NCBI GenBank assembly: GCA_022829145.1
Contig: CM040761.1
Coordinates: 19,561,245 to 19,625,244 of the forward strand
Origin: Albula goreensis
Lineage: Eukaryota; Chordata; Actinopteri; Albuliformes; Albulidae
Direction of reading: 5' to 3'
Length of the DNA stretch: 64,000 nt
The notes under the pieces are model-generated. The model was not told the DNA's origin, did not search any database, and saw only the letters and a list, made by a program, of their open reading frames with translations. The position numbers and the translations under genes were made by a program. Shown here in pieces: positions 1,407 to 30,100 of the stretch. The first letter of the stretch is position 1; the number at the start of each line of letters is the position of its first letter.

Positions 1407-4400
1407 CTCACACACACATATCTGTTGTAATGATTACCAAGGCACCACTAGATAATCTATTTTTCTAGCTCTTCGACCAAAAAGTAGCAGTTATTCACAG
1501 TACCCCACTGATAATTGTGAATTTGATTAATTTGATAAGGCAATAATAAACTTGTAAAAATGGCTGTGATTTTTGCTTTGGAGACAGAGGAGGGGCAGCC
1601 TCACCCTGTAGATGATGTTCTCCACATTGATGTAGCGAGCGACCAGCACCAGGAAGTTGTACCACTCATGCGGAGGCAAGGAGCAGAACACCTTGAAGAT
1701 CAGTTCCTCTGTCTGGTTCAGTGCCAGGGTGGACGGGTCATCGCAGTGGCGCATGTCTGCCAGCCAGGCCAGGAGCTGGAGGAGAGAGGCCACAAACCTC
1801 TGAGAGAGAGGACTCAGAAGAGCAAGAGAAGCATGGCCACAGGCCACCAAAAAACAAACCCCTAGGTTTAATGGTGAGTAGAATGAAGACATACCTGAAG
1901 GTTACTGTTGGGCAGAACTATGTCCATTAGGAAGTTCAGAACATCCGCAGGAATCGAGGTCAGATACATTACATCCATCACAAAGGCTGTTTTGTTCCGC
2001 AGAAGATCAGAAACTTTCACCTCACCTAGAGGGACAACAGGAAAAAATCCAGTCACTTAAACTAAAAAGGCATAACAGGCTTGGTTTAGAGTTGTCAGTG
2101 TAGACCAGTATAGTCATGAATATGTTTGCAGATTAGTGATGAAAAAAAAAAAGTTGATAAACATACCAAGTGGTCCAGCACTGATGTTTAGAGACCTCAG
2201 ATTGCTCACGTTGAAGCCCAAATTATTTGACAGAGCAGATGTCCTAAAACACAGCGAAACAAGTCAGGATAAACTGGTGCTTTTAAGACAACCACACACA
2301 TACACACTTAATAAACCATATACTAAAACATACACCGCCTCAAGCAAAGTAAACAGGAAGATGTGGCCAAGACACTAGACACAAAAATGTTGACTGGACA
2401 TGTCTGTATAAAGAGACAGGCAGTGACAACATCCATGTGCAGAAAACAAACAGATGCATTAGCATGGTCTGAGGGGACTTACACACACTGAAACAGTGCT
2501 AAAAAACCTGTACTGTATTGTGAGATTGACACCATTCTATAGGAGGCCACCACATTTTGCACTTCAGCCATACAAAATCAATGGAGTGTTCTGTACCAGT
2601 TGGTGTTGACATTGTATTTGGTGGGATCTCCCACGAAGGTCTCGAACAGCATGTCTGAGAAAGACTGCAGGTTGTCAGCGCCGTCTTTCAGAAGACTGGA
2701 TGACAACATATGGAGGGCTTGGACAGCAGGGATCCCCATTTCACACAGGAAGCCAGGAGTGAGGGACATGGCCACGTACAGATCCTGGGCTACATCCGCG
2801 TTCTCAAGTTCGCACACCTAACACAGAGAGAGAGGATGTGGATCACCGGTAAACCAACAGGCAAGGGGTAACAAAATGGCGCCTAATCAACCCACGCCTC
2901 ACCAACTGAAGGCAGCACATTCTCAGAATAGTTGATTTTCAGGTCACAAGTGTACAGCACTTCGTACTTACTTGGTGAACTGATTTTTAAGGTGAAGGTA
3001 AATAATCTAAATGTGATTTGACTTGGTGAGGGTTGAAATTAGAAAGAACCAGCTGCAGCATCCCAGAGTTCTCCATATGTAATTTGTATGTTTGTTTTCT
3101 TTTGTTACCTGGATCAACAGACGGTCAACAAGCGCGGGGAAGTCGGGGGCCAGCCAGTCAGTTGCAAGGATGTGAGACACAGATTGTCCCATCTGGAGGA
3201 GGAGATGAAGGCCTTCTGCAGAGAGAAGGGAGGGGCCGAATCAAACCTAGTTCACACCCCCCACTCTGCCAAATACCTCATGTTCCATGAGGTATTGTCT
3301 GCTACCTCATTTCTCTCAGTGTTGCTCTACTGTAACTAACTAACTGGCAGAAACTGCTGTAACTTACAATACTTACTTAATAAAACAACACTAAGTCTAC
3401 ACTGATAAGCCCGTCATGTTCAGCAGGACCAAAACACAGTGCAGAAATTGACAACGTATTCTGTTGTCTTTTCCGCCTCATTGAGAGCTGAGTGCCATCA
3501 AGTGAACTGAGAAGGGTCGGAGAGTAAGACAAATAACACCTTTGTACGCACTACGCAAGAAACGGGGGACAACTGTGGCAATTAGTCAGGCATCAATTGA
3601 ATCTGATTGAACAAGTACTCCAATTAAAAAATAAAAGGGTGCGCTCACACATAAAACACAACATAAGAGAAGCTACAATTAAATCATAGACTGCTTAAGT
3701 TTATTGTGCAAAGGTGCAAAAGACTTTCTTAAACAACGCCTCATTAGCAGAATGAGACAATTATGGCTTGTTAGGACAGGCTTACTGGAGGGGAGGGCTT
3801 TATTAGTAAATAGACAGGGGAAATGACACCGGGCTCAGAGCTTAATGACGAGCATTGTCATGCAAGTACAGGTTGCATATTACATTTCAGTCATTGAAGA
3901 CAGTCGAGGGGGTACATGGGAAATAACAGAAAGGGAGGAGAAGTGATTGAATTCCACTTCAGTAATGACATTTAATAAGACACTGAACACTTTTACTTGG
4001 AGACTGGCTATGTGCCTTCTGGCTCCTCATAGGATTTTCACAAAGCTGACATTAAGCCTGGCGTGCATGGTTTCAATTTGAATAATGCAGAAATTTACCC
4101 TGGAAGAAAGGGAAAATGCTTTGTTTGATCCATCAGTATCAGGAAAGGCATGAAAACCGATATTCTCTTAAAGGCAGAGTCTTCTGGGTGCTGCATTGTG
4201 CTTATTGACATGCCAGACAAATTGAAATTATACTCAGATATAGCCAATTAAAATAGATCCCCTATTGTTGAAGAGTAAACTGTAGCTTGCTGCCAAATTA
4301 GATGTAGAAGTCCTGAAGCAGAGTAAAAATGTAGGGGCAAATTGATGTAAAGAGGATGAATGAAGTCAAAAGCAATTTGCATAAGCGAAGTAGTCATCAA

Positions 4401-7500: not shown

Positions 7501-10500
7501 TAATTATTCCCCTCGGGTGTCTACATTAGCATATTCCTTGAGTACAAATTCAGAACTCATAGATGCAATGGAGGATAGAGCGTAACACTGTCTTGTTCAG
7601 CACTAAGAAATCTTTATCCTCTGTTTTTGCCCCAGTTTTGGATTGTAAACCAGTGTCATTACTGCAGCGTCCTCTGTCAATTCAAGAGAGCACAGACTAG
7701 CATATACATACATATGAAACATACATGCTCTGCAGTGTAGCTTTGCTGTGCAGTCAGCCACCGTACTGAAAGACTTTAAACCATACACCGCTGCCACAGG
7801 CACTGTATCAAGAGCAAGTTACCCAGGATACTCAGTATTGAGAACTACTAGTTCTCAATCTAAGGTTGCCCATTTCCACGCTTGCCTCAATGTTTTAAAT
7901 GCTTTGGGGTCTCTGCTTAACATCGCAGTCGACGTTTAAGCGTACAATGCAATGGTATGGCATATATAATAAAAAAACACACCCGCTAAAAGCACACCCC
8001 CAACCCATTGACAAGAATCAGAGTCCAGCAACATCAAAGAATGTTGCTTCAGTCACCTCTCAAACACCGCCAGAATGATTAAATTTTCCAAGTATTCCAT
8101 TTCAGCCTCGTATCCTGGATTGAGAGCCTGGAACTGGGCAAGGTAACTGATGATGTCATTGGTCAGGGCATCATAGATTTGGGAGTGGTGCAGGATGGTG
8201 TAGTACAAGGACTGCAGCTCCACCACAATCATCTCCGCGGTGATGTTCACATGCTGCATCTCCATCCCAGCCCCCTGGACAAAACACAGTCAGAATACAT
8301 GTAATATTCACTAACAGGGAGTCACCAAAAGCAACAAGACTGGTACTGAAAGATTCTTTCTGCTGATGACACTAATATATGTATAGACTGACATCTAGTG
8401 GTAATCATATGTAAATACATATATACAATGAAAAAAATGGTAGTTATTCAATTTCATAGATACTCTTTCAATTGTGGTTACTTACTTTTGCAGTTAATGA
8501 CTGAGTACAAGTGAACCCAAGAGTAGAAAACAGATATATAACCCACATTAAATAATATCTACACATGATCATAACAGTAGTATATAGTAATAGAAATCTC
8601 TCCAGGATGGGGACTCACATTTATGTTGTGCTGTGCAAACCCTCCAATGGAGACCGTGTAATTGTTTATGGCCTGGAGCAGGCTGGCGTTGCACCACATG
8701 CCCAGGCTGGCCTCACTGATCATGTCTGCCTGTGCAACCGCTTCCCAGGCGTTCAGCACGTCTTCACACTCAAAGGCCTGACCACTCTCTGCAGCCTTCA
8801 GTCAAAGCAACAACAGAACGAAGAGAGACAGTTACTCTGTCCTGAACAACCCAGTTAAATGCTGAGGAGAAAAGAAGCTGAGTGACATCGATAGGGGTGA
8901 CAAAGACACAGGGGACCCAGAACAATTACCCTCACGCCTTTTACTGTTGTCTGACAAAGAAGGAAATGTCACACAGATATCCTTGAAGTACATTCAAATC
9001 ACACCCACTCAAGAGTATAACATTTTATTTTTCTTTTTTAATGTATTGCTTTTTAAGAATAGGATGTACTGTATATTGCATATGTACACTTCATTCATAA
9101 CCTGAATATACACACACACATACAAAAAGTACATGTACAAGCACACACATACAGTACACACATACACACCCCTATGCATGGGTTTCAGTTTCCTTTATAC
9201 CATCAGTGATCTTGAACCTGTTTTTCGGGATAATCAAGTTAAACATCTTGAGAATGAATCCCAGTCTGCTGCGCTCTCCCTGTGATTTTCTTCTGTATTT
9301 TACAGCCTTAGCTGTGTTAACTTCACACTACATATGTTATATTTTATATATATTTATAGCACAAAAGATGTTCATTCAGGCTGCGTAGTATAATTATGAG
9401 TAAAATAAAAGGATTGGAGAGTAGTTCAGTTAGATGACATCTTATAAAACCTTTTAGTGCTAAGTGCCTAAAGGCAGAGCAACTACCCTGGACATAATTA
9501 TAATGAAATCCATCTCTGACAGGTGAGATTAATTTGAACTGAGGTGCTTGGTGTTGATAGTCATGCAAAATAATCATAAATAAGCTAAGGATAAATACCA
9601 AGGTCCATTACACAAAGGTACATACACAGCATATTTTATCAACAACAAGTGTGGTTCAGAGACAGAAAATGATAAAAGATATGAGATGGATACATTTACA
9701 AAAAATCTCTACTGTAGTCTTCTTCCAAAGCCCTTCTGAATCCCAGCCTGATAGACTACCTCATGCTGCCTAGGAAACAGCTTCATGGATGGCATTCACA
9801 GCACCAAACCACCTTAGCAACAGTTAGTATCAGTAACTACGGTACCCATAATCCTTCTGTTCCCATAAAGGCAGGTGATCTATACAGAACTGAATGGTCT
9901 TGTCATAGACATTAAGAACCACAATGGCTTTAGTGGGTGGATATAATCCTAACCTTAACAATAGGATTATGATCATTTTCATTCACATGATCCATTCAGC
10001 ATTTTCATTTCTCAGTAGAGGAAGAAAAGTATCTGTTCTCACTGTGAAAACTGCAGTGTCACTGAGAACTATTCAATAGGATTTCGCCACATACATTGTC
10101 TGCAGAAAGTATGTGTAAGTGTCATTTAGAATGTTCACTTGAGAAAAAGGTATTATTTTTCGTTGTCAGAAACAATGCTGCCTGTAGCTTTGTGGACATC
10201 GAGGAACGATGAAGAGAGAGGAATGCAAGACATACCTGTTGGATGGCATTGATGGTATGGAGCACAGCCTCGGGTACAGTGTAAAAGGCATCAGTGACGT
10301 TCACATTGCTGGTGTTTATGGCGTGGATAACATCTGACATCAAGCTAGATAATGGCTGCTTAAGGTTGTAGATTAACTCTGTGGAAAAAGCGATGCAGGG
10401 TTTCACAAAGCACATAGGCATGAGATGTCCCTGATAGCTCATGCTGGTCCCCTGGCATTAAAGGAACAATGGGGGAATGCTGTGAGTGGAAAGAGCTGCT

Positions 10501-13500
10501 ACGCTAACCTGTCTCTGCCCTTAAGTTCAGAATCAAGCTTCTGATGGCCTCCTGTATGAATGAAAAGGCAGCGGGCATGGTCTCCCAGTCTGGGGTGCCT
10601 TCCATGGCTGACAGCAGTGCTTGCAGCATCCTCTCCAGCCTGCACAGTGTCAGATACATGTCAGAAAACACAAAAAGTTGTTATATTAAAGATGTGCCCC
10701 TTGTGTTATTAACTTCTTTAACTTACATTCTCTTTCTCTTACTCTTCCCTGGAACTCATCCTTCCTCACCAGTTTACTCCATTACTTTACCTCTTCCAGG
10801 TGTCGTTGTCTGCCTGTACAGTCACGACCTGCAGCAGGACAGGGATCAAGTCTTCCAACTCCTGGCTGGACTGCAGGACTGCACCCAAATCCTGTCCCCC
10901 GGGGATGAGATGGGACAGAGACTCCAAAACTTCCTGGACCTGTCATCCCAACACAAGGGAGGAAGGGTTAAAAACAGGAATGTGGCCAGGGACATGACTC
11001 TGTCGTAGATATAGAATCTACACTCAATACAATGTTTTTCAAAAATGGTCAGCTGTCCAATGATTTAACTCCTGTGGTGAGATGACCTGTCCTACATAGA
11101 ATTGTGGTAAGTATGTATGAAAGCATGTAAATATTACTATATTACAATTTTTCTTGGTTGCTAAGACACATTTCTTGAAATTATGCTCAATTTCCCAAAA
11201 CTCTAAACGCAAATGCAAAACTGCTCACTTCTGTGTCTAATGTTGGGGAGTGTGTGTAGTGTTTTGCAAAAAGTGCGGGCCTGAGAATGTGTTTCGAGTT
11301 TTGGAGACTTTAGCTGAGGTTTTGCTCTCTGACTGTCAGTCTCAATAATTGTGCCTTGCATGTCATTTTAGTGAGGTAGCAATTGAAAACTAAGATATCA
11401 ATCTGAGGTTGAGCAGGACATAAACCTTTTTGTTTGCTCCTAACCACAACTCCTATTCATTACATTTACATTTACAAACCAGAAAAACAAGCTAGCTACA
11501 CATTTGTATTCATCTTCTTGGAATATGCAAATGAAGTATGGCAGCTGAGGACAGTAGCTTGTCTAGCTCAGGAGCCAATGGATCGCTATGAAGTTCAGTA
11601 TCATTTGTAATGCTTACTTTGTCAGTGACGTCATCAAGGTTTTCAATGTTTACGTCTTGCAAACTTTCCCATAAGGAGCTGTTCCCCTCTGTTCAAAACA
11701 TCAAAGTCAATGGATCTGTTAATTTTTGCACTTTCAAGCAAAAGAAAGAGACATAAATTTTAAAATCAAACCAGGTAATGCCTATCAAGAGATGTCTTTT
11801 CTTTCATTTAGAAAGTGCATAGTGATGCTGGCTGCAATTCACGCAGGGGGCCAGAGCAATGACTACAAATCCAGTCTCACTCCATCAAATTGCACTTATA
11901 TTTAGTGTAATCTACTGCCATAACCATATTGAAAGGTTGACTTGCCTTGGCTGGGACCCAGGAAGAATTCTGCAGCGTTCATAATCAAAGACAGATAGGC
12001 TTCAGCACTTGTGTTGGGAGGCAGGAAAAGTTGCAGTCCTTTCATGATGCTGAAACACACAAATCAACAACATCAAGGGTGCAGTTAACTTAGACAGTAT
12101 ACTTACGCAAACAGACACTGTGAAACCCTTGCATTATGTATTTCTTATGAATGCATCTCTCATAACGGGTCATGTGATCTTAAACTGGTATTAAAATCTC
12201 TCAAATCTTCAATAAAAGACCACATGCACACAAATCACACAGACCCATGGTTGGTAATCCCATTATGTACAGTTTAAGAAACAATAAAAGTTGACATAAG
12301 CAGGAGTGATCATGTATGATGGCCACAATTCTCTTAAGAACGGATGAAAATTAGTTGCCAAACATGCTAAAATTTTCATTCCGAATCAAAATGATATGTC
12401 ACTATTATCAATGTAAATGGGAATTATGTATACAATTGTTATTAAATTGCTGCTTTCTGAAATTTACTGTGAATAAAATGAAATGTGATTACTGCATTTT
12501 TATGTATTTTAGTTGGAGTTCAAATAAAAAATAGTATACATACAGGACATAATACAGCAAAAATAATGTCTAACGTGATTTATCTGAAATTCACTGTTGT
12601 GATGTAAAGCACTGTTCAGACGTGAGGGCCATGGTATTTACTTTAACATCCTGACATTTTTGACTGAAAGGTAAAAAGATTGCCTGTTATTTATCGTGTG
12701 AGTCTGCTTTAAGGAGGTAAACACTTACAGCTGGTTCCACTTATCTGGGCCACCAGGTTCTGAGATGATTTCCAGATAAGCAGTGACAGCCTGTGTCATC
12801 TGCATAAGGACAGGGGCAGCCACAGGGGGGACAATTGCCTGGATCAGGCCCTCACCATGGGAGAGGACCTCCAAAGTGAGCTCGCGGGCCTGCATGTAGC
12901 TCATCTCAGGATTCAGAATTAGCTTCAGAGACCCACGCAGAACACTCAGGGCATGTGTAAGAACTGGGTCCGGCAAAGGCACCACCCCTGTGCTATTGTT
13001 CCCCAGGATCATTCTCACTGCCTCAAAAATGGCACCCAAAAACTCATCACTCTCAACCCCGCCGTCTTGACTGGCCACAAGGAGAGCATGGTTAAGGGCC
13101 AGGGAGACGTTCTGCAAGACAGCGAGGAAGGCCTGCTGTTCCCCTGGAAGCAGAGGCGCCAAGGTGTGAAACAGCTGGCTTATGTCCAGCCCAGGGGCAG
13201 ATAAGTTCAGAGAGCCAGCATCCATCTGGAGGACACTGGTAATGGCGGAGGACAGGTTTGGGTCTTTCAACCAGTTCTGAGTGAGGTTGAGATATGTCAT
13301 CACCTGTGCTTCAATCTCATTCATGAAACTGACATCTGGAGCCATGTGTGACTGGTTCATAGCTTCATGGTAGTCTACCTGTAGCTCAATGTTTTCCTTT
13401 ACCAGCTGTATCTGAGCCTGAATGACAGAGACAACATAGTGACCGATTTTACTCAAATCAGTGCCATTCAAGGGGAGCTGTACTGACTGCATCAGCTCTT

Positions 13501-16500
13501 CGATCTCCTTCTGCACAAAAATTTGGAACTGAGATTGAGCAAACTGGTATGCCAGCTGCACTTCGGCCATCCTGATTATGGGGTTGAGGATCACAGAGAC
13601 ATTGTTGCCGTGGGACACTTCCTGCAGCCTCTTCAGATACCAATCTGTCAGCTCAGAGTATACTCTCTGGAAATGCAAAGGGTCGCTCAGATCAGTGGAG
13701 TTGAGGGTATCCATTGGGAACGTCTCGTTGGCAAGATGAAGCAGGCCCTCCAGCACCTGGATTTCATTTTTGATCTGCTGCCAGGATTCAGGGACAAGGC
13801 TATGTATGTTCTCTTGTATTTTTCCAAGCAGGATAGTCAATGAATTCACAGAGGTGGCTAGCTGGTCTTCTCCAGGATTGAGGTTTGAGGATCCTGTACC
13901 CAGTTGGAGCATATTGGCAATGGCAGAGGTCAAGCGTGTGTCCCTAAGCCAGGTCTGAATGAGGTTAAGATACTTCACCACCTGTGCTTCAATCCCGTTC
14001 ATGAAACTGACATCTGGAGCCATGTGTGACTGGTTCATAGCTTCATAGTAGCCCATCTGCAGCTCAATGTTCTCCTTCAACAGCTGTAGCTCAGCTTGAA
14101 TGATACCGATGGCATAGTGACCAATTTTACTAAGGTCAGTCCCATTCAAGGGGAGCTGTACTGACTGGATCAGCTCTTCTGTTTCCTGCTGCACAAAAAC
14201 TTGGAACTGTGTCTGAGCTATCTGGTATGCCAGCTGCATTTCAGCCATCCTTACCATGGGGTAGAGGAGCAGAGAGACACTGTTGCCATGGGAGACATTC
14301 TGTAGTCTCCTCAGGAGCCACTCCATCACCTCCATCTGTAGGTGGAAAGAGTCATTCATGTTGGTGGAATTGTGGTCATTAAAAGGGAAGGTCTCATTAG
14401 CGAGATAAAGTAGGCCCTCCAACATTTGGACTTCATTTTTGATCTGTGGCCAGGATCCGGGGAGAAGGTCACGCAGATTCACTTGGATGTTTTCAAGAAG
14501 GATGGTTAATGCCTTAATAGAGGTGGCCAACTGGTCCTCTCCAGGACTGGATATCAGAGCTCCCAGCTGCCCTTTCCCTACTGCCTCTGAAGCCCAGAAC
14601 TGGATCAAGTAATGCAGGGCCATGTACACATTTTTGGTTTCCTGGGGCATACTCAGTCCTTGAAGAAATCCTGTTGTCCTCATTATGAGCTCCAATGCAC
14701 AGTTGGCCTCGGTTGGGTTTGGGAGCTGTGCATGTAATGACACATTCTTTGGCTGGATTTGGAAGCACTGCTGGACATCCACAATGCCCATGAGGTCTGC
14801 CAGCAGTGCAGATGCATTAGTGGACCCAACTACCCTGGCAATCATGTCCAGCTCACCAAGAGTGAGGTTGGAGGCCCGCAGGGACCTCTGCAGGGAGTCC
14901 AGGCTGATGTCAGGGGTGGAGAAAATTTGCTGGAGGAAGTGGAGGGTTTTGGTGGCAGTCTTTTGTGTGGACTCTAGTGGGAGAGATTCATTGGCTTGGT
15001 TTGTCCACAGCAGCATCAAGGACAAAAGATCCACTGTAACAGAGAGGGGTAAATCTCCCTGACCCGAGAGCTGGGGGTTATAGCCTGGGATCAGTTCTAT
15101 GGAGACAGTTCCATTGACTGTCTGCAGCAGAGCTTGTGAGGCCTGGGTCAGGATCTGGAAGGCGTGTGAGACTTCAGCTTGGCAGGCAAGCCCAGCTTCA
15201 ACACAACTGGAGAGTCGTCCAATCAGGATATGGGTCTGGTTGATCAGTTCCTCGTAGCGGGGGTGTAGCTCTGGAGGGAGGAAGCCACCTAGGTGCCTCA
15301 GGATGGTTTCCAAAACTGCAGGATCACCTGTTGCACTCAGCTTTTGGAGGAGCTGGATGATGTCCATCGCAACTGGACGAAGGTTAATCATCTGTGCCTG
15401 GGAGACTCCGTTGGGCCCAAGGATCTGTGTGTAGCTTTCCAACTGCAGAGCTGAGATCAGGAAGTCCTGAAGCTGGTGCAGGTAGCCCAAGATCACTACT
15501 GTTGGGTCACCTTGTGCCTCGATCACCTGTTTTAACACCTGCATGGCCTGCAGGACCACCTCAGACACACCCCTTGCACTCTGGTTAGTCAGTGGATGAA
15601 GAACCTCCCGCAGGTATTCCAGGTCAGCAGAATTCAGGGAAGCAGTATAGGTGAGCAAGAGGTCGGCCATACCGAGGGACAGGGGGAGGGACAGTCGACC
15701 TTCCCCAGACAGCCACCTGAAGACAAGGGCTTCAAGTTCTGACAAAGATGGATCCGTCTGGTTCTCAGGCAAGCCTAAGCTGGTCAGAAGGTGCTGGTTG
15801 TTCTGGGCAGCCTGAATTATGGCAGTAATTATGTCAGAGTCATTCAGGCTACCCGTCCACAAGGCCTCCAGGGGCCCCAGGCCCAAGACCTGAAGTGACT
15901 CACTAAGGATGGACAACGAGAGCTTGCTGTCAAAGTGATCCAGGGGTAAGATATTATTGAATACTTGAATATCTTTATTCAGGAGCTGGATGAGATTCTT
16001 CAAGAGATTCTGGATGGATCCATCTCCAGGTAGCAGCTCAGGATCGCTGAGGAGGTTCAGTGCCGTGGACATGGAAAGCTGTCCATATACACCTTGAAGA
16101 AAAGCCAGTGAGCCCTGGACAAACCTGAGGAATAGAAAATAACTTATAACAGCACTGTCCACACAGCAGTAAAAATCTGTTCCAAGCAAAAATTATTTTA
16201 AAATATTTCAAATGAGTATTTAAGTAGAACTTCTTGTGTTAAAAATGCAACTGTGGTTTGACATACCAGTATGTTCCACACAAATCCATGAGAAGTATTT
16301 CAAAGTCTTTAATCTGTCATTTACCTCACCAGTCCAGTTGGCTTAACTGAGAGCTCCTCCATCAGAGATACGGCCAGTGGGACGAATTTCTCCCATGTGA
16401 AACCAGTGTGGCAGAGGGGGACCATGGTTTTTGGGTCAACAGCACCTACAAAAAACACAGGGCCATAGCATAGTATTATCAAAGAGGAAAGAGCATGGAA

Positions 16501-19500
16501 ACAAATTTTGTATATTATAATAATATATAATAACAGTACATTATTATTATTATTATTATTAGTAGTAGTAGTAGTAGTAGAAATAGTATTAGTATTTAAG
16601 TTCTCTGTACAACTATTCCACTCAACATTCAGTTGATCTCATACAGTACTTGCTCCTGAAGGCACACATTTATTCTAGTTCTGATTTCTTGAACAAGTAC
16701 TTCTGTGTTTGGACATGAGAATATGTATGCATGTGTTAGTATTTGCAAATGTATGGACCATTTGTGGGTGTGTGTGCATGTTTGTGTGTGCCCGCATTTC
16801 TGTGAGTGTATGTGCACGTTTGGGCGAGACTCACAGTTTGGAGGTGCTGTGACATTCGGCTGGAAAGTCATTATCCAGTAAGCAATGTGAAAGTATGTCT
16901 CCATGCCAAGCCAAGAGGAATCCTTCTCCTGCTTCAATCCCTCAGTCACTAAAGCCTCCACGCCCCTGAGAAGACAACACAATGAATAAATTCCTCATTC
17001 AAGGATACCTAAACTTGAGTAATTTTTTATGATTCTTTATCAGGTGCCTTAAATATAAAAATGCTGATAATTACCATTTTTACCCTGCAAAGAGTAGCCA
17101 TAAATATTATTTCTGTGCAACACCCCCTTATTCCATATTTATTCAATATGTATTCAGTAAAATCACAGTAATAATATATTGACAATTGAAAAATTAAATC
17201 ACAAACTGAACATTTGTTACTTCTACCAGCATTCTTGCCCAATTTGTCTCAGAAGTAATATATGCCCATTTTTTCAGAGCAGTTTTACTCAGTGTTTTAG
17301 CTTTTGTTTTGAGGGAGGGAGACTTACTGATAAACACCCGAACCATGACATGTAAAAACTGGGTGTGTATTCAAAGCATACACCACAAGCTAAAAATGGT
17401 GCAAGAACAAAATAGTTCCAGCTTCTTAGCTGAAATTCCCACTGCCTTATGTGTGCAGTCACCTATGTGAAGGATTCAGTAATTATATATGAGGTAAGTA
17501 CTCAGTAATATGTTTATACACCTGAAGTTATACTTACCTTTATCCTATCTGCTGAGTTATCACTATTAGTGTCAGTATAATCCTAGCCACCTTATTATTA
17601 AAAATAGCTAAAAAAAAACTATTTAAACATTATTAAAACCAGGCTTGAATCATGTGACACTTTCAACAGTCAAACACTTTAAGTGGTAAAGGCAAAATCA
17701 TTTGCCATGTTAACAAGAAAGAATTCTCACAAGACAGATGCAATTTATTTTCAAAAAAATGCCCCACTGGCTACACTGACCTTTCTATGAGAATTTTCAA
17801 CAAGTCCACTGTGTTGTTGTCAGGGTGGGGCATCCAGGCTGCCCAGTAGTCCTCATCCAATTCATCAAAGAACACTTCAAAGAAGTTGCCGAATTGCATG
17901 AGGGCTTCTACCAGTTTGTACCAATTAGAAAGGAGCATGGGAGCAGTGACGCTGAAAATCTCAGTGCCCTCGACTATGCCCACAAGTTCTGCACCCTGTA
18001 AAACAGTGGACAGAAAAAACAATGAGTTGGCATTCAAGCAAACAATACCACACCTAAATATTTCAGAATCTGTCATGATCTATGGATTTCCACCTGATCT
18101 TTAAAACAGTAACAATTCGTCTATTCAGTCCAACCTCATGTTTTCATCTATATATTTATGAAGCCATCAACAGCTCCAAAGGTGTTGAGAGATCTTGAAT
18201 CATGAATTTAGAAGCAGGTGCAATATCAACTAGAAGTAAAAGTGTATTGTGTAGGGGATGAGATGGTGAATGTCAGACCCATGCAGTACAGAATACATAA
18301 ATGCTTGTGTTTGCTATAAAAGTGCGAAAAAAATCCCCGACAAGACGCCGTGTTTGAAAACATTCTTGAGATAAACCCCGATCAGGGCAAAAGGTATCAC
18401 AATGCCTGTGTCACAGATCAACAGTGAAACCAATGTTTACCCAAAACACATGTGCCAACCTTCATGTGCTGGCCCTTGTCCTGTGACGGCCAAAGACAAT
18501 GATAGTGTGCCTACGCAAATGACTCAGGGCTGCTTTGAGCTGATCCCATCACAAGGCTCGGATTGCAGGAATGCTGTTGGGCCAGCTCTTCCGGAATGAA
18601 CAATGCAGCGTGTCGCACTTACCTTGGAGACCACGGGTGCCCACTGGGCCAACACCACGCTATCTAAGAGGGACATGTTCGAGCAGAGGACTGCCTCCAG
18701 AAGCTGAGGGGGGACAGAGGTCAGGTCGGAGAGCCAGGCCCAGGTGCTGAGCAGGTCTTTGCACTCCATTGAATGAGAGAACAGCATCTTTGGGAAGAGA
18801 GATAATACAAACATATACCCTTGGTTTGAACATGTGTGGCAGGGTGGTAAAGTCTTCACTGAACTTATCTGTGAACCAGATTGGTATCTAATGAGGAGTG
18901 CCATTCAAACAGTTCATTGTTTTTTTTTTTTTTTTGTGGTTTGAATTTTCGTTGTTATATAGTTGTCACATCAATGCAGGCACAATCTTCGAGCCACATT
19001 TGTCATTTTTTATTCCATCAGTTTTCATCCACTCATAACATGCCATGTTATCACACTACTGCCACAACTTTATAGCAGCTAACGCAGTGTAACATTCAGT
19101 GAAAGGTATACTTGTTATTTGTGTGTCAATAAACAGCAAGAATGGAGTTCTCCTTCATTTCATTTCATTCTCCTACAAGTCGCACTTCAGCAATAGATTA
19201 TCCATCAGGATGCATGAAGACGTCATGCATTTCCCTAGGGTCCACAGATATGAGACCAGAATAACACTTACCTCCAGGGTGCTCTCCATGGCTCTGCCGA
19301 CCCAAACGTTGGCCACAGTCTCGTTACGCATCAGAGACATGAAGAGCTTCTGGATGCGATGCGCCTGAGTCAGAACCTCTTCCATTTGCCCTGGATGTGA
19401 AGGATGAACACAGGGAGACAGGGAGACGCGATCAGACAGGTGTAAGGGACACATTCCTACTCCCTTTTCAGTGCCATACTTAAATCTCTGCTGGGGTGAA

Positions 19501-21133
19501 TGAGAGAAGGGATGTTTAGCTCCAGAGTCTTAATCTTTAGTCTGAATAGGGAGTATTACTCTGGGCATTGAGTCCAACTTCCATTGACATGGGATATAAC
19601 CATGTATAATATCCAGGCAAATTAATGGGTAAGATGTCTGAAAGTTGAACCTTAATTTAATATTATTCATGAATTAACATTTTTTTGCTAATCTGCTAAC
19701 CCACAAACTTCAGAAGCTTCATGAATTGTCTATATTTTTAACACATCAAGACAACTGTGGACAGGGATGTTGATGGTTTTCACCCAGTGGAAATGGTATG
19801 ATGTTGTTAGCCAGCGCTGTACTGCAGCCCCCAGGAGATGCAGGAGCCTCTTGTGACCACATTACTCAGACATACCCTGCTGTGTTTCCAGGGCTTTTGT
19901 GACCAGCTCCATGGAGGTGTAGCCAACCATAAGGCCACGCATGACATAGTCCCCACCAGGAAGTCCCCGAAGCAGATCCAGTGCCACTGTGCCCAAGTCC
20001 AGGAACCTGTGGACACAAGCCCAGTACCATTAGGGTGACAGCCTGCATCCTAGCAATGATTCTAATTAGCGCAACTCTTCAGCCAGGCAGTTGAGCTAAT
20101 GAGTGAGCCTGATTAGTGAAATCACCTGTTTAATGCACATGTAAAACTAATACAAGGTAGGATTTTTACTTCCTGAAGCCAGAGGTTTTCACCTTTGCAT
20201 GTGAAATCTAGCACTTGTTTACAAGATGTAATAACTTGTTTAGAAAATGGAATACCCCAATTTTGAGATGCCAGTGTTTGTGTAACAGGGAAGACACTCA
20301 AGTGCATGTAGTCCCAGAAGCAGCATATATTTACAAGCCCATTGCGCTTACAGAGGATGTCAGTGAGATCGGTGGAAGCTTACAGTTGATCCTGCGGGCT
20401 CAGGGGCTGCGCGCCGCTGTTGCGCAGGGAGGCAGGAGGTCTACCAAAAAGGCCCTGGTTCTCAGGGCTGTAGGTCCTCAGAAGGTTCTCCACTGTTCGA
20501 GTGAGGATGGCCACATCAGAAGAGGCCACATGCTGGCTCCAGAGCTGAACCATCTGCGGAGGTGTTTTAACAGGGTAGAGTGAATCAGTTCACAAGCAGT
20601 GAGCGGGAACTTCATACACAACATGTCAATAAAGTCATGTGGTTTGTCATCTAAAATGTTTGCTGCCCATTAAAGTTATCTTCTTTGGATGCAAGTTTCG
20701 ACAGTGCCAATCCAACCATGATGGAAACGTGCAGTTTGATAATAACTGTAAATAAGAATCGCAGCATAGTTCAATTATGCGCTTTTTGCTAGGTCTGTTG
20801 CTGATACACAGAGTGCTATCATAGGAAACTTTTTACATGGAGCAAAAAGAAACAAAGGGGTGTTGGACTGATCTGTAATTGGTGCTGGTATTTTCTCATC
20901 GTTAACAGTGGAGCTAATTACACTTGAGGTCTTATGACTGTCCCCATGGCAGGAAAAAAGGTAAGCACACATAGAGCTGCTGTTTTACCAGAACTACAGG
21001 TGCATTGTCCTATGGTTGCTTATCAACTGTTTCTATGGCAACGATCCCAAGGCGACCATACTGACAGAGAGGGAAGGGACTGAGAGAGAGGCCTTGGACC
21101 ACAACAAGAGGAGAGAGAACAGGGGTAAGAAAG

Positions 21134-21164
<31 letters not shown>

Positions 21165-24100
21165 AAGAAAGACATTTAACCTGATAATGTATAAAAATGT
21201 AAATGGTTGGATAAACACCTAAAACACCTAAAAAACCACTGTGGGACAAACACAGGACCCACTGGTTGCCTGGTGTGTGGCAATGAGCCTCGGCATGAGG
21301 GACACTATGTGTCCAGATCATGCCCAGGAAAGCATTCCAGGAAGCAGGTTATCTCCTGCCTCATCACACATTATCAGGCATGGAAAACCACAGCCTCAGC
21401 AGCGCTCCAATGTGATCTGACTGATTAGCCCTGGTGCAGCGCAGGGATAGAGAGCTGTCAAATTGCTCTCAAAATCTCTGAGCTCTCCCAAACTGTGGAG
21501 GAGGTAACAATGAATGAGGCTTGTAAATACAACTGGGCATATGGGAGACAAAAGGGGAAGAGTGAGTTTAAAAAAAAAAGCCAAGCAAACACACAAAGTT
21601 CATCTGAATTGGAAATTGGATTTTAGAGGTGAGGAATGAGACATCACAGTAAATGAGAAAGTGTAGAAAGGAGAAAAAAGATTGAATTGATTGAAGTCCA
21701 GTTTCAGACCTCCTTTGGAACAGAACTCATCTGTGCTACTTCCTTCCCGTATTGGATTTGTTCCCCACTGATGTTAAATTAATTGTCTGCTCTTGGCCTG
21801 CTGTCTGCTGGCCCGCTGATACCGACCCACTCTATCTTGGGATCAATACCTGCAGCATCACTCGGTCTTGCCTGATCAATCCGAACACCCTGTGCAGTCT
21901 CTCCCCACCACAGGAGTGGGCAACATCACACACATAGTAGTGGAAAGAAGGGTAGTCCATCAGAACTGTGGCCTGCAGGGAGATGTAGTCATATTAGAAT
22001 TAACAATGCTGTCCTGAAGTGATACCAAGTATAAGGGGGGTGGGCAAAAATGAATGGGGAAAGATACACTGCAATCAAGAGCATGATTAGGTGTAAACAA
22101 AAACAGAGAAAAAAGAGAGTATATTGTTTTGTTACGGAGTTGCAGTGATACATTTCTAGTGTAGTTCACAGTATTCAGAGAGGGCATTTATTGAAGGTTT
22201 CAATAAAATACTTTTAATTAACATGGCAATGATCCCCAAAGATTTCATTTGAGCTCTGAACTCAAAACTTATCAGAATCAGAATTAACAGAGGTTTTCCA
22301 TTGTAAGATAACCCTTGTGTGCTTTGCAATGCTTTTGAGACCAGCAAATGTTAGTATTACCTAGGATTATCTAGTATTTTGTTGATATCTTCCTTATTTC
22401 AAACCATGTGTGAATGGATAAAATGAAATGGCATACCTTGTGCAATGGAACCTTGACCCTGCTGATGACATCAGTCTCAGTGGCAGATAAGTTAAAATGC
22501 GCTGGCATCATGGTGACATCACTTAGCCGAATGTAGACATCTGTGAAAGGTCACATAACGGGGCAGATTCCATATTACACTTCCAACCACATCTTTGGGC
22601 TCAGACAGCTCACAATGAATTTCCGTGCAATGACTAAATTGTCTGAAGGGAGATACAGAACCTCTCCACTTCACTGCACTGCACTTCTCTATCTACCACC
22701 TCATCTTCTCCCTCTTTATGGCTCTTCTCATCAAATTTTCTAAATATCTCTTTCTATCAGAAACAATGTCCTTCTCTCTTGACCATTCTGCATCCCCCCT
22801 CTACAGCTGAAATGATCAGAGAGGTACTACAAACGACAAGCAACACAGAGAGGTAGGAAATAGACAGGAATTGTTAACGGTTATAAACAGAGTCATAAAT
22901 TACCCAAAGTGTTACAATTCCAAAAGAATTTCAGTCACCAGGAAAGCATAGCATATCATATTTTACTGCTTCCAACATCATAAGCAATATGTTATTGGTT
23001 TCACAACACATTGTCTCAAGAAGTAAGGGCTAATCACCACACGAATCAAAGGAGTCCCATGTACAGCTAGTGCTTCACGTCTCACGTATATTTTAATATT
23101 AGGCAATATATGTGATCCTTTTGTGTTTTCAAATGCTTTTGTGGAGCAATCCTGAATATATTTCTTGTATAGGTAAATGAAGGTTGTTTCCTTGGTAACA
23201 GTTGCTGGGGGTGACTGGAGACAGGTGTGTCAGTCATACCTCTGCCTGGCCATTTGCTCATGTAGTTCAGGAAGGTGATGGCTTCATCCAGGGCGGGGTT
23301 CATGATGGTGAGGGGAACATGTGGGAAACTGCTCTGGATGGAGCTCAGAGTCCTACACCCCAAGCAAGAGACAAATAAGCACCTCTACAGTTTCATACAC
23401 GGGGGACACAATGGATTTTAGGTCAGGACCAAAAGACTATTAAAAGCTCATGAATATAGGGTCAGATTACATGTACAGATAAGCTCACACATACTCACAC
23501 AGATAAAGACCAGCACATATAAACACTATCAAATGCATACAGACTTACATAGGGAAAAATAATAATAATAATAGATAAAACAAAAGGCTAACCTTTTAAT
23601 AAATATTAACAAATATATCTTTAAACACACATGCGCATGTACACAAATACACAGACTTTATTTCCCTCTCATGGGTCTCTCAGACAAACCCACCCTGGCC
23701 CCCGCCACTATTTCGCACCTTTTGATGTTGTGCAGTAGAGAGGCTGAATGCTCCAGCACCTCCTCCACACTGGAGGGGAGGAAGAGACGAGGCAGCCCCA
23801 GAACCGCCTCCCACAGCGGGTTCTGTAGCTGCAGCTGATCGTACAGCAGCAGCGTCTCTCCCACACTGTCTAACAGCTCCACTGGGTTGTTCAGCAATAG
23901 CTCGGTCATGACCTGGAAACCAGAGAAACATTTCCACCGCACTCAACATTTTGCAAGTTCAAATTCCAAGATACTGATCTAGTCCAATAAAACGCAAGTC
24001 CTCACTACAAGAAATCTTCTGCATTTCCAAAAGCAGCAATGGTTAAGGACTGAAATCGATATGTTGCATTGCCATCAATTTTCTCAAAAATCAATCCAGG

Positions 24101-27100
24101 ATGTTTGACATTTTAAGGATTAGGAAAATCAGCCACAGGAAAACAGGCATTTGAGAAGTCAAGAGACTTCCAGGGTAAGAAGGCATGTCCATAAATGCAT
24201 CATCAAAGTGGATGTGTCACAACATGTGGACATGGAACAGTGGGGGTGACAGGGAATGTGGTGTAGGCATGGAACTATAGGCTTGTCACAGAGAGTGGGA
24301 AATGACTTGGGGCATGACAGGTAATGAGGACATGTAGTCATGGGCATGATAGGAGGTGTGGGCATGAAACTATGGGACCACAATACTGTACAAGGTCATG
24401 CATTCCTCACCTGGTTAAGAGTTAGGAGGAAGACCTCCAACAGTGTGTCATTAGTTCTGCAGAAGGTGACCAGGCCGTAGGAGAAGGGGTCTATGGGAGA
24501 TTCTACCGTGACATCCAATATGGACAAGGAGACGTTGCACAAAGACCTTTTCAACATGTTCACAGACTCCAGCATGGCATCCAGCACCTCCTATAAGTGA
24601 GAACAGTGTATAACACAAAGCCGTAAGATGAGACAGCAGCCTCACTTGAACAAAATTAGTTAATAAATCTCTACAATTGCTGGGAGGGCATAATTCCAAA
24701 TCCATATTATTGGCACATTGCTGAGGTGTACTGAGACATCTTATCCATCAACTCTGCTCCTTGCTTACATTTCCATTATAAACCATTGGTCCAGATTTGA
24801 CCCTGATAAGACCTTTGCACCAACATCTTTGAGATTACCCAAATTCATCAAAGGGGTCAATTTATGTGAAGAAGGTCAAGGGACATGCTCATTTTCCCAT
24901 GAGGATATCACGAACCGTATCATTAACTAAGGAAGGTTATATGATATTTCAGTGATGATAAAAAAAATGAACTGCTACATGTTGACCCAAATATAAGATA
25001 AGGCTTACAGGAAGAAACGGGAATGAAATCCTTGAACAGATACACCCCTCTATGAATTGGGTTCCCAACTTTGTGTTCAACAATATCCTATGATCTCATC
25101 TCTTCAAAATGTTACTCAACAATAATTTGATGATAATTTAGCTATGCAGATGCAAAGGGGTGAAATAAATATGTAGTAACAGATACATTACATAAAAGTA
25201 AGCAAGGGCATGTGAGCATCGGAAGACAATGAACAATACCCTGCTTAGGAATTCTACCAAGATTAAATGTCCCACAAAGGTGGGACACTGGTTAAAACAA
25301 ACATCTAAAACAAGCGATATTTTCCTCCTATCCTTCATACCAGAACCGTCATTCCACTCTGTTGTTATCTAGTGTTGAACAAAGAAGGCAACTGTTTGAT
25401 CTGTTTTGGCACAGAACAACAATGCATGTCAACGTCAATGGCTCTGTTCATGTGAACTCTTGCACAGTAAAAACCACTTTAATGAGCAAACATGTGCATG
25501 ATATTACCTTCATACATAACAAAAAAGGGGTACATTACCAGAGTTAATATGTCTACACTCAAATTTATTGCTCAGCATCTGTTTAATCCTGTGCATTACC
25601 ATATTCAAGTTTTGTTTGTATTTTAACTATTGTAACTATTTTAACTCATTCCCTGTTATTTGCCAGGTTGCAACCATAAATGAGAACTCCTTTAGTGAGT
25701 TTAGTGAGATGGACTGGGCTGTGCAGTTACTCTGGGGGGCTGAGGGAGTTCCCTCGTTAATGATATTTTCCTGGCTTGCCCACCTGGTTTTCTAGAAAGG
25801 TGGTGTTCAGGGACTCTATGATGACAGTCTTGTTAGGTATTCCTTCATGGCTGGAATCTTAAGAGAAACAAACAGAGCACATTTTAATCTACATTATGCG
25901 TAATAAAGTAATAATCTGTCATATCTGTAATAAATGTTAACATGAATATTATAACTTAATGTCAAGTTAAATTAGCCTTTTATAAAATGTGTCAATGTAT
26001 AATAACAGCAGTTGTAACAAACACCAAAGTCCAAATTTGTTGTTTGTTACAACTGCTGTTCCTATACATTTCTGTATATTATACATTTTGTTTTCCAAAG
26101 AGCCATACTTAGCATTCTATGCCAAATGTAAACCATGTCGGACTGGTCAGGGTTTTCCGCCAGCAGGGCAGCGTGGACTGTACTGGCCTTCTGGATGTCC
26201 GCAAAAGTGTGTTCAGAGAATGGCAGCAGGGACAGTCTGCGGTGAAGAGCGAAATGAATGGCAGGTGACACAGAAGCCAGAACACCATTGCTGCTGGGCC
26301 CCTGAGCCTATTCAACTGTTAGTCACCTTGGATAAAAGCATCTGACTGCATTGAATGACTGCAATGAAACAGTTCATTGTACAGCACTTACCTGCTTCAG
26401 TTTCCATATGTATCGGGCTAGAACAACCATTATATATTCCTGAGACTTTTCAGTCATAGTGCAAGGCTATATGAAATGCATTCAGAAAAACACATGACAA
26501 AAGCTTGTTCTAGTTTGATGTAATACAATAATGGTACATTTTCCTCTTTCATTTACTGAAATGATGTCAGACATTGCACTACAAGATTTGTCACTACTGG
26601 ATATAGTAATCTGGACACAGGGAATCTGGAAATCTGAATTGGGCATAAACCCTTAAACACCATTCTAACTATGCCTTACTAATTTAAACACTTATGTAAA
26701 ACTGTAAGCATTTAAATAAGGCAATATGACACACTTAACAAAAAAGTAAACAAATTATAATCATAAATGACAAAAGAAGTATGTCTTGGCACAACTGCTA
26801 AATGCTTTTGCTATTACTAAGAAGGAAAATAAACAAATTGGATATTGAAAGTTTTGGTGTACAAACCAATTTTATGAGGCCAACAACTGGCTATCCAGCA
26901 ATGGTAGAGGACACAATTAAAAAGACAGGTCAAATGAATGAATGATATCAAACCACCGCTTTGGTCAAGTGTACCACCCAAACATGTGACCTTTAAACTA
27001 ATGTTGATAAAGTGTGACACATCCTCCTGTTTGACTCTAAAGTATGTAACTAAAATAAGCATGAGCCAGTTAAGTCACATAACCAACATTTTTTACAATA

Positions 27101-30100
27101 GCTGAGCTGACAGCGAGACGAAAACATGAAGAGAAAAGGTAATAATGCCTAACAGATGCATTCCACTGTCCAACGCAAAGCGCATTACAACAGATTCTCC
27201 TCATCTAAGCAGTTCCATATTGGCAGGCCTGTTTGCGATCTGCTTGTTTTTACTCTGGGCCAAGAACGAATGTTTACCTGAAACAGTGACATTGGAGTTA
27301 ATGAGGGGAAAAAGTCACAGTTGCATATTCCTGTACACACCTATACGTGTGGGTGTGTGTATGTGTGTGTGTGTCAGATTCTTTCCTCACATGAACAAAC
27401 AAAACGGACAAAGGATTCACAAACAGCTTCCCAGTGAGTGAAACCAATTCCAGAATCCCTTGCCACTTCTCTGAGTGGTAATTTTCCATGCAGCCGCTTT
27501 CAGCCCATATACAACAACCAAGCGCTGCCTACTGCTGTGCGAGGACCTCAAATTCCCATGACCCATGTATTCTTGCAACAAAGCAAAAAATAAGTCAAAA
27601 TACCTCCATACCATCAAAATCTTTCACCAAAATTAAATTAATAATAAAAATTAAGTAATAAAAAGTGTCTCTATCGCAAAGATAATAAACTCAGAGGCAA
27701 TTCCAGTTGGAGGAGTGGTATTCTGGGTCAGTTTGCAGTCTTGCAGCTTATACCTATCTCAGAAATGCAAAAGCAGCTTATTCCCAGCTGTCATTTTCAC
27801 AGTGTAAAACCCAATGAGTTATATTGATGCAAAATCAATTCAGAAGTATTTTGAAGAAACCCATTGCCTTAAAACATTTGACTCAACAACTCCATCAGTT
27901 GAAGTTACCCGTGTTAAAGGCAGTTACGATCTTAATATGATTAGGTTGCCCTCCTCAATTGGTTCAAAGAAATACCTTCCCTAAGGCTGTTTGAGTATGT
28001 TGAACTTTGGGAACTCGTGGGTTCGACAGTGTATGGTTGGATTTTATGGTAAGGAGAGAGGACTGTCTGAAACAGTGCAGACAGGGTCAGGGCAGGTGAG
28101 AGAGGTGCAGGTGAGAGAGGACACAAGGCGACATGCGGCAAGTACCTCTGAGCATCCTCGGCCTTCCAGGAGGAGCGCAGGGAGGCACCAGAGCGGGATC
28201 CCACCAGGTGGGACTTGTTGGAGCAGGTGCTGTCTGTGTTGCACATGAGGGTCTGCAGGAAGGGGAAGAACCCTGCACTTGGCAGATTCCTTGGAGCCAC
28301 ATAGCCTAGAGAGAAAGGAGAAGTCTGTCAAAACCTGGCTAGCTTTAAGTCACAATATCACAGTGCATCAGACAGGTCTATCAGTAAAAATTAACAATCA
28401 CCTCTATTGATAAGGAGGATTAAGTCCCTTTCTTCTGGAGAGGATATTGTGAAATGGGGCCTTTTTTACTTTTAAATAGCTGATCTAAGTGGATTTATTA
28501 CCTAAAAGAAAAGGAAAGTTGCCCTGGAGTGTCTTGTGTACATATATAAACAGTGGGCACTGTCTGCTCAGTGCACAAGTTGTGCAATATTTGGATAAGT
28601 CCACTTCAACAATAAGATATCATTGGCTCCCACAGATCACTGGCCAAAGGATATGAAATGAAACATAAAATTACAAATCTACCTGGCAGAGAATAAAAAC
28701 AGTCACTGGCAGAAAGTATTGTTAAGATCACAGGTGCAAGACAAAGACACATAATAACAATGGGCACACTGAGTGACTGCAGCCAGTCAAACAAGCCCTC
28801 ACAAAAAGACCTGGGAAGTCACACAAAATAGGCTCTGCCATCAATGACACCTGAAAGCAACTAAAGAAGCTTCCACTTCTCCTTTCTTGCCCAAACTTCC
28901 ATTCCTGCACTTTCCACAACACCTTTCTACATTCTCTACAAAGATTAATACATTTTTATACTAAAACAAAACGGTGAAGTAAGGTGAGTTAAACCAATTG
29001 AGAAATGAAGAACACAGCTAGCTAGCTAAATTAGCTAGCTAGCTACAGATTAACTTTTTAGTTTTGTCCTTTTCCTGTCAGGTAGTGCGCCCAGACCCGT
29101 CATTTCTGTGCAATGAACTCTGTTTAGTGGATTAATGTGGTCTGACACGATCAAAGTGCATTCATTGTCTTTGGAACCGGATCTCCTATCATCCACATGC
29201 CTTCGGAGGAATCTGCCTTTGAATGATGCAGGCAGCCAGCAAACAGTAGCTGCTTTGCAGATGAGACAAAGCCACTCTCCCACTGAAGAATTAGTGACCC
29301 CCTCTGAAGAATCAATGAAAACAAATTGCATCTACCATTTACAGCGGCTAATTGGAACAAAAAGGTGTGAGTAACTTGGTGAGAAACTGAGGAAGCTTGA
29401 AGACATAAGAAACCAACACAATACTGATGCAATGAGAGGAAGAGTCTTCAAAAATGGTTTAATATCGGTTCTAATTGGTCAATCTTATGTGTTTTATGTT
29501 CCTCTGTGCATGCATAACACTGTGTACACAAACCACAATTATTCATCTCACTTTCAATAACAGAAGTGTGTTTTTTTTTCAACTGGTATGATGTGTAACC
29601 AGTACACATAGTTTCCACAGAGCATGAAGGGCAGTTTCTAAACCACGCCTGTTTTTCTCTCTAGCACAGAGTTAATCTGCCAATAGTGAAAGAAAAGGCA
29701 TCTCTCAAGGAGTCAATGAACTATTGTGGGCCAATGAACAACCCTACACTCCTCCAACACCACGGCTACCAGAGGAAATGGAAATTCAAGTTAAAATTAA
29801 ATTCAGACACCATGGGTATATCTATGCCTGTTTTGGAAGATGTTTACAAAATACAGATTTTGTACATTGCCATCTACTTGGTCTTTATAACCTCACAATC
29901 TTCATAATCTCACGCGTTTTTGGTTTCAATGACCAGGTGACTCTGCTTATCCTCCACTCAATCAATAATTTAATTGATCAAAAATGTAACCTCTTTATAA
30001 ATGACTCCTCACCCATAAAGCACAATAATAAAATAAAAGTGTCAGTTGACATGAGTCATTCAAAGTCTCTCGGTGTGTTTATGTGTGTTCAATATCTGGG

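What the first reader, a model, noticed from the sequence alone, without database searches (positions are those of the whole stretch)
16325..24590. Periodic intron phases 0-2-1-0 reveal an exon-set duplication series
Counting bases by hand, intron phases after exons 5 to 15 run 0,2,1,0,0,2,1,0,0,2,1. The triplet 2-1-0 recurs after exons 20-22 and 28-30. Random phases would rarely do this. It suggests the ectodomain grew by tandem duplication of a four-exon unit of about 180-200 residues, with the repeat now visible mainly in gene structure rather than sequence.
Basis: seen in the sequence. Interest (0 to 1): 0.75.

Follow-up and report, generated by a model that had tools for sequence, protein, structure and literature searches.

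The report
Exon-set duplication in fish ABCA12
The huge outer part of a fish lipid-transport protein carries a repeating pattern in how its gene is cut into exons, and part of that pattern is the footprint of an old tandem duplication of a whole block of exons, which shows how one of the largest membrane transporters grew.

Summary
The phase pattern is real. The gene (minus strand, Albula, annotated abca12) has 34 exons in the window; the model equals public Albula proteins over E1-E18 and E25-E34. 2-1-0 occurs seven times (1 of 200000 shuffles reaches that).

One ancient duplication is shown by sequence: E12-E18 matches E22-E26 exon for exon over 343 columns (score 54.3; 60 column shuffles reach at most 26.9), and the giant exons share their 3' parts. 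Its natural frame is phase 2 to phase 2.

Support for the rest is indirect: a conserved cysteine pair in 5 of 6 0-0 exons against 2 of 24 others, and Albula ABCA1 genes with one such cycle. Some predicted proteins of other fishes hold further copies.

Best reading: growth by repeated duplication of phase-2-bounded exon sets from an ABCA1-type cassette. Five searches of an open-licence library listed no paper saying so.

The parts
35069..35137 (-). E1, ends phase 0; start of protein
   Evidence: equals P0003
33343..33436 (-). E2, 0->1; 94 nt as in Albula ABCA1 e2
   Evidence: P0003; ABCA1 exon map
28146..28305 (-). E3, 1->2, two conserved Cys
   Evidence: P0003
26109..26236 (-). E4, 2->1
   Evidence: P0003
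25784..25857 (-). E5, 1->0
   Evidence: P0003
24411..24590 (-). E6 (reader exon 5), 0->0, Cys pair spaced 26
   Evidence: P0003; Cys
23719..23912 (-). E7, 0->2
   Evidence: P0003
23240..23352 (-). E8, 2->1
   Evidence: P0003
22437..22540 (-). E9, 1->0
   Evidence: P0003
21850..21972 (-). E10, 0->0, Cys pair spaced 6
   Evidence: P0003
20384..20553 (-). E11, 0->2
   Evidence: P0003
19876..20006 (-). E12, 2->1, 131 nt; start of block A; copy of E22
19272..19390 (-). E13, 1->0; copy of E23
18623..18787 (-). E14, 0->0, Cys pair spaced 26; copy of E24
17781..17995 (-). E15, 0->2; copy of E25
16835..16965 (-). E16, 2->1, 131 nt; matches start of E26
16325..16445 (-). E17, 1->2; breaks the cycle
   Evidence: orthologues and P0003
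12729..16124 (-). E18, giant exon, 2->2, 3396 nt
   Evidence: P0003
13212..14189 (-). tandem repeat in E18: 13212-13511 and 13890-14189, 82% identical, spacing 678 nt
11946..12049 (-). E19, 2->1, 104 nt, GC donor
   Evidence: orthologues
11618..11688 (-). E20, 1->0
   Evidence: orthologues
10791..10939 (-). E21, 0->2; supposed end of block A
   Evidence: orthologues
10509..10639 (-). E22, 2->1, 131 nt; start of block B
10236..10378 (-). E23, 1->0
8619..8795 (-). E24, 0->0, Cys pair spaced 25
8057..8274 (-). E25, 0->2
   Evidence: P0055
4766..7180 (-). E26, giant exon, 2->2; start matches E16, E17 and E18 start, 3' part matches E18 3' part
   Evidence: P0055
4494..4597 (-). E27, 2->1, 104 nt
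   Evidence: P0055
3109..3215 (-). E28, 1->0
   Evidence: P0055
2597..2817 (-). E29, 0->2, Cys pair spaced 23; supposed end of block B
   Evidence: P0055
2167..2243 (-). E30, 2->1; proposed counterpart of ABCA1 e4
   Evidence: P0055; junction register
1895..2025 (-). E31, 1->0; proposed counterpart of ABCA1 e5
   Evidence: P0055; junction register
1605..1775 (-). E32, 0->0, Cys pair spaced 20; proposed counterpart of ABCA1 e6
   Evidence: P0055
1029..1193 (-). E33, 0->0; proposed counterpart of ABCA1 e7
   Evidence: P0055; its far junction is off by 16 residues
376..571 (-). E34, 0->1; proposed counterpart of ABCA1 e8
   Evidence: P0055; low-scoring path

Best explanation
The window holds the 5' part of a fish abca12 gene, coding for an ABCA-type lipid transporter of about 5000 residues. 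SHOWN: its ectodomain contains two paralogous blocks. Block A runs from E12 into its giant exon E18, and block B from E22 into its giant exon E26. Exons correspond one to one (E12~E22, E13~E23, E14~E24, E15~E25, E16+E17+E18~E26), with equal phases. The blocks probably extend to E21 and E29 (E19 and E27 are both 104 nt and 2->1), but that part is not significant. INFERRED: the copy arose by unequal exchange between phase-2 introns, which keeps the frame. The whole phase cycle 2->1, 1->0, 0->0 with a cysteine pair, 0->2 descends from one ABCA1-type exon cassette (ABCA1 e4-e7) that was multiplied. The gene ends keep the ancestral exons (E1-E6 at one end, E30-E34 at the other), and E7-E29, about 2940 residues, is inserted copies. 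The giant exons are intron-poor runs that duplicate internally (226-residue repeat in E18). The process has continued in other fishes. Function inferred only: a longer extracellular lipid-handling region on an ABCA1-like core.
For: Phase pattern beyond chance. E12-E18 vs E22-E26: 343 columns, exon register, probability 85.3, E 5.9e-6, score 54.3 against 17.1 reversed and 17.1 +/- 2.8 (maximum 26.9) in 60 column shuffles, with rows that could cross-contaminate removed. hmmsearch: the E3-E17 profile has a second, weaker hit on the other copy in Albula (iE 0.002), gar (6e-7), Synaphobranchus (2e-5), Megalops (0.002) and Aldrovandia (0.005), 5 of 11 proteins printed. Giant 3' parts alike and in register to the exon end: probability 90 in window comparison, 63 whole against whole. 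Cys pair in 5 of 6 0->0 exons vs 2 of 24 others (giants, E1, E2 and split codons not counted), Fisher p 0.0008; one of the two others is E29, which begins at phase 0 after a 1->0 exon. Albula ABCA1: phases 0,1,2,1,0,0,0,1,0 for the C17 gene, the same from e3 on for the C18 gene; 0->0 exon with a Cys pair spaced 25 in both, counted by eye. E30-E34 vs ABCA1 e4-e8: the best path runs exon for exon, junction offsets -2, +1, +1, 16 residues. E1 to the first 15 residues of E6 match ABCA7 residues 2-192, E 3.9e-16. Other fishes: E19-E25 twice or more in 4 of 121 proteins holding it (three species), E16-E17 in 3 of 109, E18 tail in 45 of 124.
Against: No significant sequence similarity links E4-E7, E8-E11, E30-E34 or ABCA1 e4-e8 to each other or to the A/B blocks (probabilities at most 3.5 per cent; up to 9 against windows of the giants). 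E30-E34 against ABCA1 itself has a probability of only 0.3 to 0.5. E17 breaks the cycle; two cycles lack a 0->0 exon (before E21 and E29). Exons of equal phase are not more alike than others without the known pairs. The Cys pair of E10 is spaced 6, not 20-26; E21 and E33 lack one; E17 would be a third exception if the split codon at its start were counted (Cys seen). In 6 of 11 proteins printed the second copy was not found. The copies in other fishes are in predicted proteins, many of them isoforms of one species; the Centroberyx copy is 99% identical and its congener P0020 shows none in the survey, so assembly error is possible. No other species' genomic DNA was seen.
Confidence: 0.68

Rival explanations
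1. Only one duplication happened (block A to block B). It doubled part of the phase pattern; the remaining 2-1-0 runs (E3-E5 inherited from ABCA1, E7-E9, E11-E13, E18-E20, E29-E31) are coincidence or independent intron gain.
For: Only A/B similarity passes controls. With block B and the ABCA1-shared start removed, a triplet this frequent of any kind still arises in 5916 of 200000 shuffles.
Against: The 2-1-0 triplet itself reaches four in only 178 of 200000 such shuffles; the Cys pair sits in the 0->0 exon of most cycles; junctions coincide in place and phase in 9 against 3.3 expected even without the known pair and the ABCA1 pair (1 of 1000; 23 of 1000 at tolerance 2, 12 of 1000 at tolerance 5; pairs not independent).
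Confidence: 0.22
2. One reading: a four-exon unit in frame 0->0 (E6-E9, E10-E13, E14-E17) was duplicated in tandem, side by side.
For: Perfect period 4 over 11 phases.
Against: No significant similarity among these blocks, at most 0.9 per cent probability; two of three pairs score below the reversed control. The shown copies begin next to phase-2 introns, and the sets copied in some other fishes, E19-E25 and E16-E17, are phase 2 to phase 2 in Albula.
Confidence: 0.07
3. The exon model is wrong and the pattern an artefact of counting.
For: The scan found some exons only with orthologue help; E19 uses a GC donor.
Against: Exact agreement with two public Albula proteins and a median of no extra residues at junctions in 25 orthologues.
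Confidence: 0.03

Closest known systems
ABCA12/ABCA13 (Prades et al. 2002, title only seen in reference lists: 5058-residue protein with a 4.8-kb conserved exon)
   Same: ABCA transporter with a very large ectodomain coded partly by a giant exon; fish relatives are mostly named abca12
   Different: The title names no exon-set duplication; the paper was not read. Surveys report ABCA13 absent from the fishes examined and ABCA12 present (passages). Whether the fish gene is ABCA12, ABCA13 or the forerunner of both was not tested.
ABCA1 (Albula P0149, P0154)
   Same: Phases 0,1,2,1,0,0 at the start and 2,1,0,0,0,1 before the conserved part; Cys pair in the 0->0 exon
   Different: One cycle only; ectodomain of ordinary size; sequence similarity beyond the first exons not significant
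Tandem duplication of symmetric exons and domain-repeat expansion (PMC1553488, seen as a listing and start of abstract; symmetric-module rule recalled)
   Same: Units flanked by introns of equal phase, copied in tandem without frameshift
   Different: Class 2-2 sets of several exons plus a giant exon, strongly diverged (15% identity in the alignment)

Membership tests
ABCA12/ABCA13-type ABCA transporter | Close relatives annotated as such | tested here: met
   53 relatives, mostly named abca12 or ABCA12 where named; more
ABCA12/ABCA13-type ABCA transporter | Two membrane and two ATP-binding halves downstream | tested here: inconclusive
   Collinear matches of Anguilla abca12 residues 3191-4497 left of the window on the same contig; the stretch with a second ATP-binding part was not fetched
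ABCA12/ABCA13-type ABCA transporter | ABCA12 versus ABCA13 orthology | not tested
   No tetrapod ABCA12 or ABCA13 was used, no tree built
Exon-set tandem duplication (block A / block B) | Sequence similarity between copies above controls | tested here: met
   searches support
Exon-set tandem duplication (block A / block B) | Same exon order and phases, equal phase at both ends | tested here: met
   E12-E15 = E22-E25 = 2->1,1->0,0->0,0->2; E16-E18 = E26 = 2->2 overall
   probabilities 0.2 to 0.9
   Model of E3-E17, pLDDT 65, pTM 0.39, no coordinates for overlay; fold searches gave nothing usable
ABCA1-type ectodomain-1 exon cassette | Intron phases and Cys pair | tested here: met
ABCA1-type ectodomain-1 exon cassette | Significant sequence similarity of inner units | tested here: not met
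   only junction register supports E30-E34

The most novel reading that the evidence does not exclude
The entire giant ectodomain of ABCA12/ABCA13-type transporters, giant exons included, is a degenerate tandem array of one ABCA1 ectodomain cassette (ABCA1 exons 4-7), copied repeatedly between phase-2 introns, so that these proteins are ABCA1-like pumps with a many-fold extended lipid-handling stalk, still growing in living fishes.
Probability: 0.35. Interest if true: 0.8.

Novelty: new member of a known kind. Interest (0 to 1): 0.55.

Why it matters
[quoted passage not shown] Showing that the corresponding region in fish is built in part of duplicated exon blocks, and perhaps of an ABCA1 cassette, gives natural domain borders for expression and structure work. 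It also offers a testable origin for one of the largest membrane transporters.

Tried and rejected
First automatic exon model gave E17 as 1->0 and E18 as 0->2, which would have made the cycle more regular; orthologues and P0003 show 1->2 and 2->2, so I dropped the prettier version.

HHalign of exon units and sliding windows of the giants with 26 sequences, deeper profiles, exon-by-exon scores, ABCA1 as a bridge and a merged A+B profile (built on the profiles later found contaminated) did not link E4-E11, E30-E34 or ABCA1 to the A/B blocks.

A score of 110.6 and probability 98 for A against B was inflated: the search had drawn rows of one block into the other's alignment (15 overlapping pairs). 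The clean figures are and are the ones I use. The same check was made for the E3-E17 and E19-E25 profiles (probability 58.5, score 44.5, reversed 17.5, in place of 90.5 and 49.7 for the nearest comparison). The E27-E34 profile was not checked in this way. The junction tests used the unchecked sets; without the pair concerned still gives 12 against 3.6. A first version with uniform junctions gave 11 against 3.1, 2 of 1000; one junction lies at the tolerance limit, hence 11 or 12.

Paper searches for a prior description: (listings), on symmetric exons (listing). None of the listed titles or abstract starts describes exon-set duplication in ABCA12 or ABCA13; most subscription papers are not in that library.
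Full report
WHAT IS THERE. The gene lies on the minus strand. A protein spliced from predicted exons finds 53 relatives, fish abca12 proteins where named, the longer ones of 4.4 to 5.4 thousand residues, with Albula goreensis P0003 (1896 residues) 100% identical where aligned. The window is G000:C21:19561245-19625244, and C21 has the same length, 26920537 bases, as the contig of P0003. The final model has 34 exons in the window. It equals P0003 over all its 1896 residues (E1-E18). P0055, a second public Albula protein, contains E25-E34 exactly and starts inside E24. So the public annotation splits one gene in two, and E19-E23 are in neither half; they are carried by orthologues. In an alignment with 25 orthologues every exon but E26 is covered in 23 to 25 of 25 (E26 in 17), with a median of no extra residues at the junctions (after E19: -1).

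THE OBSERVATION. Phases after E1-E34 are 0,1,2,1,0,0,2,1,0,0,2,1,0,0,2,1,2,2,1,0,2,1,0,0,2,2,1,0,2,1,0,0,0,1. Seven 2-1-0 triplets occur; 1 of 200000 shuffles of the 33 phases (E34 left out) reaches that, but 740 of 200000 reach seven of some triplet. Of eight 2->1 exons seven are followed by a 1->0 exon; the exception is E17, which ends in phase 2. 26 of 35 other proteins aligned at that junction carry the extra residues that this needs.

REFRAMING. Cut at phase-2 introns, E4-E29 falls into nine sets: E4-E7, E8-E11, E12-E15, E16-E17, E18, E19-E21, E22-E25, E26, E27-E29, of 192, 170, 210, 84, 1132, 108, 223, 805 and 144 residues. Four of the nine are complete 2->1, 1->0, 0->0, 0->2 cycles, and both giant exons are 2->2. 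Any such set can be copied without a frameshift.

SEQUENCE TEST. Profiles of E12 to 250 residues into E18 and of E22 to 250 residues into E26, each from 64 non-redundant rows taken from 95 proteins that hold both, align over 343 columns, from E12+8 to E18+79 against E22+8 to E26+185, score 54.3, E 5.9e-6, probability 85.3. The reversed target gives 17.1; 60 column shuffles give 17.1 +/- 2.8, maximum 26.9. An earlier figure of 98% came from contaminated profiles and is withdrawn. Without any such search step, 26 aligned sequences (Albula and 25 orthologues) already gave 81% for E14-E15 against E24-E25 and 90% for the giant 3' parts, whose alignments end 35 and 34 residues before the respective exon ends. 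A plain hmmsearch with E3-E17 finds the second copy in 5 of 11 proteins printed, best in gar with iE 6e-7. So a block A to block B duplication is shown. E16 and E17 have no separate counterparts: their similarity runs into the start of E26, so E26 corresponds to E16+E17+E18 without two introns.

WHERE THE TEST FAILS. No other pair of units passes. Exons of equal phase type are more alike than others only because of the known pairs (159 of 5000 with them, 890 of 5000 without).

INDIRECT EVIDENCE FOR A SINGLE CASSETTE. (i) Conserved cysteines (70% or more of the rows): two in E6, E10, E14, E24 and E32, that is 5 of 6 0->0 exons; among 24 other exons only E3 and E29 have two; Fisher p 0.0008. E1, E2, the giants and split codons were not counted; with the split codon before E17 that exon would be a third exception. 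E29 begins at phase 0 after a 1->0 exon, like a fused 0->0 plus 0->2. (ii) The Albula ABCA1 gene on C17 has exons e1-e9 with phases 0,1,2,1,0,0,0,1,0; the C18 gene agrees from e3 on, its first exons lying outside the stretch fetched. Both have a Cys pair spaced 25 in the 0->0 exon e6 (spacing counted by eye). These are the phases of the start (E1-E6) and the end (E30-E34) of the abca12 series with nothing between. E1 to the start of E6 matches ABCA7. E30-E34 against ABCA1 e4-e8 scores low (probability 0.3 to 0.5), but its best path crosses three junctions within two residues; the fourth is off by 16. (iii) Over 36 block pairs, junctions coincide in place and phase 12 times against 4.0 expected (0 of 1000); without the A/B pair and the E30-E34/ABCA1 pair 9 against 3.3 (1 of 1000), weaker at other tolerances (23 and 12 of 1000). 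The pairs share blocks, so these are not independent.

OTHER FISHES. Among 148 abca12-type proteins (this model and P0001-P0148 without P0003, isoforms and partial models included), two or more copies were found of E19-E25 in 4 of 121 holding it (two of the four are Alosa isoforms), of E16-E17 in 3 of 109, and of the last 170 residues of E18 in 45 of 124, in carps at about 225-residue spacing and up to eight copies. In Carassius gibelio each copy joins an E18-tail-like stretch to an E19-like stretch at the place of the E18|E19 junction (by eye), and its annotated isoforms differ in steps of 225 residues. In Albula itself E18 holds a 678-nt tandem repeat, 82% identical. E19-E25 and E16-E17 are phase 2 to phase 2 in Albula. 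These are predicted proteins, and the exon borders of the other species were not seen.

CONCLUSION. The pattern is real and part of it is the footprint of a duplicated exon block. That the rest comes from the same process acting on an ABCA1-type cassette is the best single account, at 0.68; it rests on phases, cysteines and exon register, not on sequence similarity. Function (a longer lipid-handling ectodomain) is inference from the family: in mammals ABCA12 moves glucosylceramides (passage, PMC13161189), and cholesterol internalisation by mouse ABCA13 needs the long N-terminal region (passage, PMC7948424).

Noticed in passing
window 12729-8795; Albula P0003 and P0055: The public Albula annotation splits this gene into two (P0003 ends with E18, P0055 starts inside E24), so E19-E23 are missing from both.
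   Followed up: yes
window 11946-12049: E19 ends at a GC donor (CAAG|GCAAGT), the only non-GT donor in the model.
   Followed up: partly
window 12729-16124: Tandem repeat inside the giant exon, 678-nt spacing, 82% identical over 300 nt; similar unit length (about 225 residues) to the carp repeats.
   Followed up: partly
P0060, P0018, P0139, P0001, P0114, P0115 and carp proteins: Tandem copies of exon sets in single lineages; lengths of the 120 abca12 proteins listed run from about 2800 to 6175 residues, partial models included.
   Followed up: partly
window 47661-47911, minus strand: An exon of a GDP-fucose protein O-fucosyltransferase gene (PF10250, E 1.5e-19), probably POFUT2 (name recalled), upstream of abca12.
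   Followed up: no
window 16320-16330: E17 has a second GT five bases upstream of its donor that would give the phase-0 end the cycle predicts; perhaps a trace of a shifted donor.
   Followed up: no
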